A stretch of 20,870 nt of DNA. Source: a virus. The notes beneath the pieces were generated by a model that was not told the origin of the DNA, did no database searches, and saw only the letters and a program-made list of their open reading frames with translations. The stretch lies in IMG/VR virus record IMGVR_UViG_3300047546_000906, positions 1 to 20,870 of that record; one strand, written 5' to 3'. This document shows positions 17,252-17,817 of the stretch, piece after piece. Every line of letters starts with the position of its first letter. Positions within the stretch are counted from its first letter, which is position 1. The translations under genes and the position numbers were made by a program.

Positions 17252-17266
17252 AATTTTTATTTTTTG

Positions 17267-17441
17267 TAGTCAGGACAGGATTCGAACCTGTATGGTAGGC
17301 TTATCTAGAAAGCCGTTTCAAGTACCTATTACAAAGGTATTACGGAACTTTACACCGAATGATTACGGACACCAACCTTTGATTTTAGCGTTTTCCTATG
17401 TACTTCCCGTAAAAACAGGGCACACTTTCCGCCACCTGACT
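17267..17441 (-). tRNA. tRNA(Tyr, GUA)-like element with greatly enlarged D-loop
   Basis: On the minus strand a perfect 7-base acceptor stem is formed by AGTCAGG (17441-17435) with CCTGACT (17274-17268), then discriminator A and CA. The T-arm is ACAGG-TTCGAAT-CCTGT (17291-17275). A five-base anticodon stem TACCT/AGGTA closes loop TTGTAAT (17334-17328) with U33, A37 and anticodon GTA (17332-17330). A variable arm GGCTT-TCTAGAT-AAGCC fits class II tRNA, though longer than usual for Tyr. The D-stem GCGGAA (17432-17427) pairs with TTCCGT (17347-17342), but the D-loop is about 80 bases instead of about 10. An alternative reading as class I with anticodon loop TCTAGAT lacks U33. It may be an insertion-containing or pseudo-tRNA. 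Confidence 0.6.
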
Positions 17442-17464
17442 AATTATTTCAATATTTTAAAATT

Positions 17465-17770
17465 TTAACAAGTGAAATCGTCAGAAGTACAAACCCGATA
17501 ATCGTCGGAATCATATTCAAGTTTCTCCTTGTGCTTATACGCCTCAAAATTGATGTACTTTTCGCCTTTAACATATTGGCTCGATTTAAATTTTGATTTT
17601 CCCTTTTTTACTAGCAATCCATCGCCAAACAAAACGTAAAACTCGTTTTCTGCAACGACCTCGTTAAACTCCAAGTATTGAATCCACCAATCTACTGGCT
17701 TACGATTCTCGTCTATGACCTTAGTTGCTACAAAGTATCCGAATGGATTTAAAATTTCCGCTTGTTCCAT
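17465..17770 (-). CDS. Hypothetical minus-strand protein, 101 residues
   Basis: From ATG 17770 (a TTG at 17776 would add two residues) the 101-residue product is hydrophilic with a cluster of aromatic and charged residues (EQAEILNPFGYFVAT, VDWWIQYLEFNEVV, YVLFGDGLLVKKG) and a C-terminal YDSDDYRVCTSDDFTC tail. There is no membrane segment. No family is recognised. It is divergent from the early operon and heads the minus-strand unit containing the tRNA-like element and the Nmad1-like gene. Confidence 0.65.
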   Translation of the reverse strand: MEQAEILNPFGYFVATKVIDENRKPVDWWIQYLEFNEVVAENEFYVLFGDGLLVKKGKSKFKSSQYVKGEKYINFEAYKHKEKLEYDSDDYRVCTSDDFTC

Positions 17771-17817
17771 ACGCAAGGTAAAAGCATAAAAAACGACACG
17801 AAAAAAAAATGTTTGAT

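What the first reader, a model, noticed from the sequence alone, without database searches (positions are those of the whole stretch)
17267..17441. tRNA(Tyr)-like element with a D-loop enlarged by about 75 bases
Acceptor, T-arm, anticodon arm (GUA) and variable arm can be paired on the minus strand, yet the D-loop is about 80 bases. The extra sequence is odd for a tRNA: it contains a duplicated block (ATTACGGA at 17339-17346 and 17362-17369 on the plus strand), a bulged hairpin and no group I intron length. Known bacterial tRNA introns lie in the anticodon loop, not the D-loop. It may be an inserted fragment, a decayed tRNA, or a tRNA-like RNA with another role.
Basis: partly seen in the sequence, partly recalled or inferred. 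Interest (0 to 1): 0.7.

Follow-up and report, generated by a model that had tools for sequence, protein, structure and literature searches.

The report
Phage tRNA-shaped RNAs lacking anticodons
The odd tRNA in this phage fragment belongs to a large family of phage RNAs that keep the body and processing signals of a transfer RNA but replace the part that reads the genetic code with different structured pieces, so phages appear to use the tRNA shape as a carrier for other RNAs.

Summary
The element is real but mis-parsed. At least 280 distinct relatives in metagenomic phage contigs share its acceptor stem (AGUCAGG/CCUGACU), Leu-type D-arm and T-arm. What lies between the D- and T-arms is hypervariable: 199 sequence groups among 276 elements, 155 of them singletons. 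In 158 members with a canonical D-arm, an ordinary anticodon arm occurs only at chance level.

Twelve close relatives fix the fold of the window element by compensatory changes. The D-stem is the ordinary GCG/CGC. The D-loop carries an optional 28-nt hairpin, not about 75 extra bases. The anticodon position holds a remodelled arm (CAAAGG/CCUUUG) without an anticodon loop, followed by a long variable-type arm. The proposed tRNA(Tyr) GUA arm and GCGGAA/UUCCGU D-stem break in relatives.

Members carry the U-1 and encoded C74 seen at most ordinary tRNAs of the same phages. They lie in one orientation per locus, no two alike, and are nearly absent from bacterial genomes.

Best reading: a mature, non-decoding tRNA-scaffold RNA whose swapped domains act in trans. 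Expression, processing and targets are untested. No description was found in Rfam or in the open-licence papers searched.

The parts
17267..17441 (-). whole tRNA-scaffold RNA element (175 nt, A1 at 17441, A73 at 17267)
   Evidence: 12 distinct full-length relatives with the same ends; empty site in close relatives
17435..17441 (-). acceptor stem, 5' strand AGUCAGG
   Evidence: pair 4-69 is C-G, G-C or U-A among relatives
17268..17274 (-). acceptor stem, 3' strand CCUGACU (A73 at 17267)
17442..17442 (-). U at -1, as in most tRNAs of these phages
   Evidence: U-1 in 257 of 313 family members and 311 of 451 ordinary tRNAs
17266..17266 (-). encoded C74 (no CCA encoded), as in most tRNAs of these phages
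   Evidence: C74 in 307 of 313 members; encoded C in 411 of 451 ordinary tRNAs
17388..17432 (-). D-arm: D-stem GCG/CGC (17430-17432 with 17388-17390), D-loop expanded to 38 nt
17398..17425 (-). optional 28-nt hairpin inside the D-loop (GUGUGCCC..GG..GUACAU), before the conserved GG
   Evidence: present in 4 and absent in 8 of the 12 aligned relatives; also with other middles in L086, L248, L373
17375..17381 (-). remodelled anticodon-position arm S1, 5' strand CAAAGGU
   Evidence: compensatory changes G-C to A-U (4 sequences) and C-G to U-A
17332..17338 (-). S1, 3' strand ACCUUUG
17339..17374 (-). S1 apical domain holding the duplicated UCCGUAAU; replaced by a shorter apex in L403, L405, L414, L416
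17292..17331 (-). 40-nt near-invariant block: long variable-type arm (GGUA/UACC outer, GGCUU/AAGCC inner) and U48
   Evidence: all but two columns invariant in 12 relatives while helices around it covary
17275..17291 (-). T-arm ACAGG UUCGAAU CCUGU
   Evidence: C-G to U-A change in L405
16916..17251 (-). downstream gene A, 111 aa (PHROG 1485, unknown function), starts 15 nt after the element
17465..17776 (-). upstream gene B, 103 aa, unknown, ends 23 nt before the element

Best explanation
The element encodes a non-decoding, tRNA-shaped RNA. Proposed course: (1) it is transcribed within the phage operon (inferred from its place between two co-directional genes); (2) the host's tRNA-processing enzymes cut it out at U-1/A1 and near C74 and complete the CCA end (inferred from end signals shared with ordinary tRNAs of the same phages); (3) it folds into a tRNA core with acceptor, D- and T-arms, in which the anticodon arm is replaced by the CAAAGG/CCUUUG arm with a large apex and followed by a long variable-type arm (shown by covariation); (4) the tRNA core protects and presents these swapped modules, which act in trans on a host or phage target, most plausibly as a decoy or regulator of a protein that handles tRNA, including tRNA-targeting phage defence (step 4 is inference only). 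A phage carries several such RNAs, each with a different module. Rough odds: steps 1-3 about 0.7; trans-acting cargo given these about 0.7; the decoy role in particular about 0.25.
For: Family: at least 280 distinct elements with the same ends. Fold: compensatory changes in acceptor, T-stem and S1, 4 pairs, 0 of 500 shuffles as high; the same fold from RNAalifold and from energy in 9 of 12, within 1.4 kcal/mol in the rest. Other subfamilies are structured too: a pseudoknot with covariation in both stems, a covarying stem next to the T-arm, and more crossing-stem signal than in shuffles (p<=0.05 in 22% of 102 middles). No anticodon arm: 3 of 158 members against 2.95 in shuffles. tRNA core kept: last base before the T-arm is U in 121 of 127, consistent with an A15-U48 pair; D-arm identical to that of Bacteroidota tRNA-Leu genes. 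End signals: U-1 82% and C74 98% in members, 69% and 91% in 451 ordinary tRNAs of the same loci. Repertoire: up to 14 per record, one strand in 56 of 56 loci, 0 of 156 same-locus pairs in one sequence group. Never within a same-strand ORF; 132 of 205 classifiable placements lie between co-directional genes. A -7-like promoter motif upstream occurs 26 times against about 7 expected. The variable-type arm block stays nearly invariant while the helices around it covary, and the D-loop hairpin and the long or short S1 apex occur in all four combinations.
Against: No expression or processing data. No target found: no excess complementarity to the surrounding phage DNA and no protein family consistently next to the elements. 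Some AGTCAGG-type hits look like normal tRNAs (for example tRNA-Lys UUU in L175), so the line between tRNA and tRNA-like is not sharp. Within single subfamilies sequences are few (4-12 distinct), so covariation is limited in depth. U-1 and C74 would also be kept if the elements only served as processing sites.
Confidence: 0.5

Rival explanations
1. tRNA punctuation: the elements are only cutting sites for RNase P and RNase Z between genes of an operon, as tRNAs are in mitochondrial transcripts; the middle is free to drift.
For: Intergenic, on one strand, mostly between co-directional genes; tRNA-type end signals; hypervariable middles; presence or absence at one conserved gene junction.
Against: Middles covary and, in the window subfamily, a 40-nt block is nearly invariant in about 20 contigs while other parts change; a punctuation mark would not need that. 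Close relatives do without the element at this junction.
Confidence: 0.15
2. Aminoacylated non-decoding tRNA: charged by LeuRS, which does not read the anticodon, and used as an amino-acid donor or to tie up LeuRS or EF-Tu.
For: D-arm identical to host tRNA-Leu, A73 in 292 of 313, U48 kept; constant acceptor stem.
Against: A73 was part of one search pattern; G73, expected to block leucylation (own knowledge), occurs in 17 of 313. Does not explain several different middles per phage.
Confidence: 0.12
3. Decayed tRNA or pseudogene with insertions.
For: Derived from tRNA-Leu-like sequence; some middles contain pieces resembling other T-arms.
Against: Compensatory changes in acceptor, T-stem and S1, near-identical arms in hundreds of elements of different phages, retained end signals.
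Confidence: 0.05
4. A tRNA(Tyr) or other tRNA interrupted by a D-loop intron or insert that is removed.
For: Single-sequence fold; archaeal tRNA introns outside the anticodon loop are known (own knowledge).
Against: The GUA arm and the D-stem it needs fail in relatives; family members of 70-90 nt have no room for both insert and anticodon arm.
Confidence: 0.03
5. DNA-level element: a small mobile unit or decoy attachment site whose inverted ends happen to be an acceptor stem.
For: Gain or loss at a gene junction; identical elements with different flanks, L150/L153 and L288/L311; many integrases use tRNA 3' halves (own knowledge).
Against: Covariation shows selection on RNA pairing; same-locus copies are never alike, unlike amplification of a mobile unit; swapped flanks are also explained by recombination in the shared arms.
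Confidence: 0.08

Closest known systems
tmRNA (SsrA)
   Same: tRNA-like acceptor and T-arm, anticodon arm replaced by another domain, matured by tRNA enzymes (own knowledge)
   Different: tmRNA has a degenerate D-arm, about 350 nt, four pseudoknots and a tag-coding frame, one copy per genome (own knowledge); here a full Leu-type D-arm, 70-190 nt, several unlike copies per phage and no match to Rfam tmRNA models
Bacterial tRNA-Leu
   Same: D-arm TGGCGGAATTGGTAGACGC identical to host tRNA-Leu, long variable-type arm in the window subfamily, A73, U48
   Different: acceptor AGUCAGG not found on the host tRNA-Leu genes, no anticodon arm, D-loop hairpin in some
Murine gammaherpesvirus 68 vtRNAs (TMER RNAs) and plant-virus tRNA-like structures
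   Same: viral use of a tRNA shape as a carrier or processing signal for non-tRNA RNA (own knowledge)
   Different: there the cargo follows the tRNA-like part or the structure sits at a genome end (own knowledge); here it replaces the anticodon arm, in DNA phages
Phage T4 stable RNAs 1 and 2 (C and D)
   Same: phage-encoded stable RNAs of unknown function beside tRNA genes (own knowledge)
   Different: no tRNA scaffold shared with this family is known to me; not compared here
Engineered tRNA-scaffold vectors for recombinant RNA
   Same: foreign RNA carried on a tRNA core for stability (method line of PMC3753655, listed; insertion at the anticodon from own knowledge)
   Different: man-made; this looks like a natural counterpart with a varied set of cargoes

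Membership tests
Functional elongator tRNA (Tyr) | anticodon arm of 5 bp with 7-nt loop and GUA | tested here: not met
   arm breaks in relatives, no compensatory change; family-wide anticodon arms at chance level
Functional elongator tRNA (any) | acceptor, D- and T-arms with conserved core bases | tested here: met
Functional elongator tRNA (any) | aminoacylation and decoding on the ribosome | not testable with these tools
   needs biochemistry
tRNA-maturation substrate | U-1 and C74 signals as at ordinary tRNAs of the same genomes | tested here: met
   actual cleavage not testable
tmRNA | match to tmRNA covariance models or ARAGORN tmRNA, tag frame | tested here: not met
Intron-containing tRNA | removing an insert leaves a full cloverleaf with anticodon arm | tested here: not met
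   short members have no room for both
Group I or II intron | match to intron models | tested here: not met
   no Rfam match other than tRNA
Rfam tRNA RF00005 | score over gathering cut-off | tested here: not met
   window 18.3 bits against 29; some shorter relatives pass at about 31-48 bits
This AGUCAGG tRNA-scaffold family | AGUCAGG-type acceptor, Leu-type D-stem, T-arm ACAGG UUCGAAU CCUGU, U-1, C74 | tested here: met

The most novel reading that the evidence does not exclude
Bacteroidota phages run a repertoire system: one conserved tRNA chassis, matured by host enzymes, on which many unrelated structured RNA modules are displayed in place of the anticodon arm and exchanged between phages by recombination in the shared arms, each module acting on a different host or phage target, for example to counter tRNA-sensing defences.
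Probability: 0.3. Interest if true: 0.93.

Novelty: categorically new. Interest (0 to 1): 0.82.

Why it matters
If the RNAs are made, phages have turned the tRNA body into a general carrier for other RNAs, with several different cargoes in one genome. That would add a large class of phage RNAs that gene finders and Rfam miss, point to unknown targets in Bacteroidota infection, and offer natural examples of what tRNA-scaffold biotechnology does by design. Such contigs may now be annotated with spurious tRNAs of random anticodon: ARAGORN labels 53 of 280.

Tried and rejected
(1) tRNA(Tyr) with an 80-base D-loop: rejected by relatives. (2) H-type pseudoknot UGGUG/UACCA in the window element: first favoured, dropped because the short-apex relatives lack the 5' strand; pseudoknots stay supported in other subfamilies. 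(3) U-1 and C74 as ends of a mobile DNA unit: dropped when ordinary tRNAs of the same loci showed them too. (4) Antisense guide: longest complement to the surrounding locus 10.0 against 9.97 for shuffled middles. (5) A partner protein next to the elements: none found. (6) Host or prophage origin: six contigs in about 85,000 genomes, all MAG contigs of at most 33 kb; 1 of 395 Bacteroidota genomes, itself one of those six. (7) Isolate phages: only short tRNA-like partial matches. (8) A published description: nine searches of open-licence papers found none; preprints and most subscription journals are not covered. (9) A fuzzy-pattern count of neighbouring non-coding blocks timed out and was replaced by BLAST; a first constrained-fold script did not apply its constraints and was redone.

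Full report
Observation. On the minus strand 17441-17267 the acceptor stem, T-arm, a variable-type hairpin and the ATTACGGA duplication are present as described. ARAGORN and Rfam at gathering thresholds find no tRNA.

A family. Nearly all have AGTCAGG plus a Leu-type D-arm 70-180 nt upstream. With a second scan by the 5' end I collected 280 distinct elements. Ends are almost constant; the middles fall into 199 groups among 276 elements, 155 of them singletons. Because the scans used exact ends, conservation inside those patterns is partly conditioned. Features outside the patterns are not conditioned: U-1, C74, U48 and second elements in the same locus.

The window subfamily. Patterns from the middle gave 20 contigs with the same 3' module; 12 distinct full-length elements were aligned. 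They show an ordinary D-arm in most and a D-loop hairpin of 28 nt in some; a long or a short apex of the central arm; all four combinations of the two; and a 40-nt block invariant but for two columns. Pair counts favour acceptor, D-stem GCG/CGC, S1 CAAAGG/CCUUUG, variable-type arm and T-arm: four pairs with compensatory changes against 1.2 in shuffles, 0 of 500 shuffles as high. RNAalifold chooses the same fold unaided.

No anticodon. In 158 elements with a recognisable D-arm, a 5-bp, 7-nt-loop arm at the anticodon position occurs 3 times; shuffled middles give 2.95. Ten of the 158 have hairpin-expanded D-loops, with about seven different inserts (and the list). Other subfamilies are structured in other ways: L147/L301/L327/L399 form a pseudoknot with changes on both sides in both helices; L181 and relatives have a covarying stem ending two bases before the T-arm. 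Across 102 non-redundant middles, crossing stems anchored at the D- and T-arms beat dinucleotide shuffles at p<=0.05 in 22%, so the pseudoknot is common but not shown for all.

Processing signals. Family members have U at -1 in 257 of 313 and C74 in 307 of 313, without an encoded CCA as a rule. In 451 ordinary tRNAs of the same loci U-1 is found in 311, an encoded C at the same place in 411, and CCA is encoded in 37. The elements therefore carry the same end signals as real tRNAs of these phages. This supports, but does not show, maturation by RNase P, RNase Z and the CCA enzyme.

Genomic setting. The window is a siphovirus-like fragment whose tape-measure protein is nearest to Flavobacterium phages. 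The element sits between gene B (103 aa) and gene A (111 aa). In a close relative without it (L060, 88% identity in both proteins) the stretch from the stop of B through the start of A is 17 bases; other phages have unrelated family members at the same junction. Elements share one strand in 56 of 56 multi-element loci, and none of 156 same-locus pairs fall in the same sequence group. By my estimate from the group sizes about one would be expected by chance, so the point is only that copies are not amplified. Records of 60-281 kb hold up to 14. None lies within a same-strand ORF. No neighbouring protein family stands out.

Distribution. Six contigs in about 85,000 bacterial and archaeal genomes hold the exact 3' end, all MAG contigs of at most 33 kb. 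None of 395 Bacteroidota genomes has it within two mismatches except one of those six. Isolate phages give only short tRNA matches.

Interpretation. The data support an RNA selected for a tRNA core without decoding ability, carrying exchangeable structured modules. That it is transcribed, matured and acts in trans is inference. I favour a trans-acting role because the module sequence is strongly kept within a subfamily, which a mere processing site would not need. A decoy or regulator of tRNA-handling proteins, including defence nucleases, is the most natural guess for a tRNA-shaped RNA, but nothing here tests it.

Novelty. Viral tRNA-like RNAs and tmRNA are known, and the idea of a tRNA-like body with a non-decoding domain is not new. 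A fixed chassis with a set of unrelated modules within one phage has no counterpart that I know of or could find (Rfam; paper searches). The paper library lacks preprints and most subscription journals, so an existing description cannot be excluded.

Noticed in passing
L082, L248, L376, L406, L416 and others; directly downstream of family elements in several: A 58-nt block AAGGCTAAG..CCCACCTGCC..GGGATGTGAG..GGTAGCCTT recurs in 9 loci with what look like compensatory changes (GATCCC/GGGAT, GACCCC/GGGGT, GACCCT/AGGGT); possibly a separate structured RNA or terminator.
   Followed up: partly
L374, L377, L411, directly upstream of family elements: A 35-nt block ending GGTCGCTAGTGCCTACCAACAGTAGCAAACTT abuts the acceptor of family elements; also seen before an unlike element in L202.
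   Followed up: no
L082, L375/L071: A conserved non-coding block of about 69 nt (GGGTGTGTACAGCCCGACCGAAAAGAG...) between family elements and gene A.
   Followed up: no
ordinary tRNA genes in the fetched loci: 411 of 451 ordinary tRNAs encode a base that reads as C74 but only 37 encode CCA; the first C of CCA alone seems to be kept in these phages.
   Followed up: partly
L116:6434-6507; L175; L322: Apparently normal tRNAs (Ile GAU, Lys UUU) share the family's AGTCAGG acceptor.
   Followed up: partly
L159, L166, L214, L219, L353: Some middles contain a second T-arm-like hairpin (for example TTCTCGTTCGATTCGAGAA), as if pieces of other tRNAs had been taken up.
   Followed up: no
L200, L210, L228, L174 and others: The Bacteroidota -7 motif TANNTTTG lies about 12 nt upstream of the acceptor in a subset (9 at -12; 26 in all against about 7 expected), so some elements may have their own promoter.
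   Followed up: partly
window:15059-15577: NUMOD4/HNH homing-type endonuclease gene.
   Followed up: no
window:6582-9764: 1060-aa virion protein with many repeats of the type YGNGKFVAV..STDGINWT in its middle.
   Followed up: no
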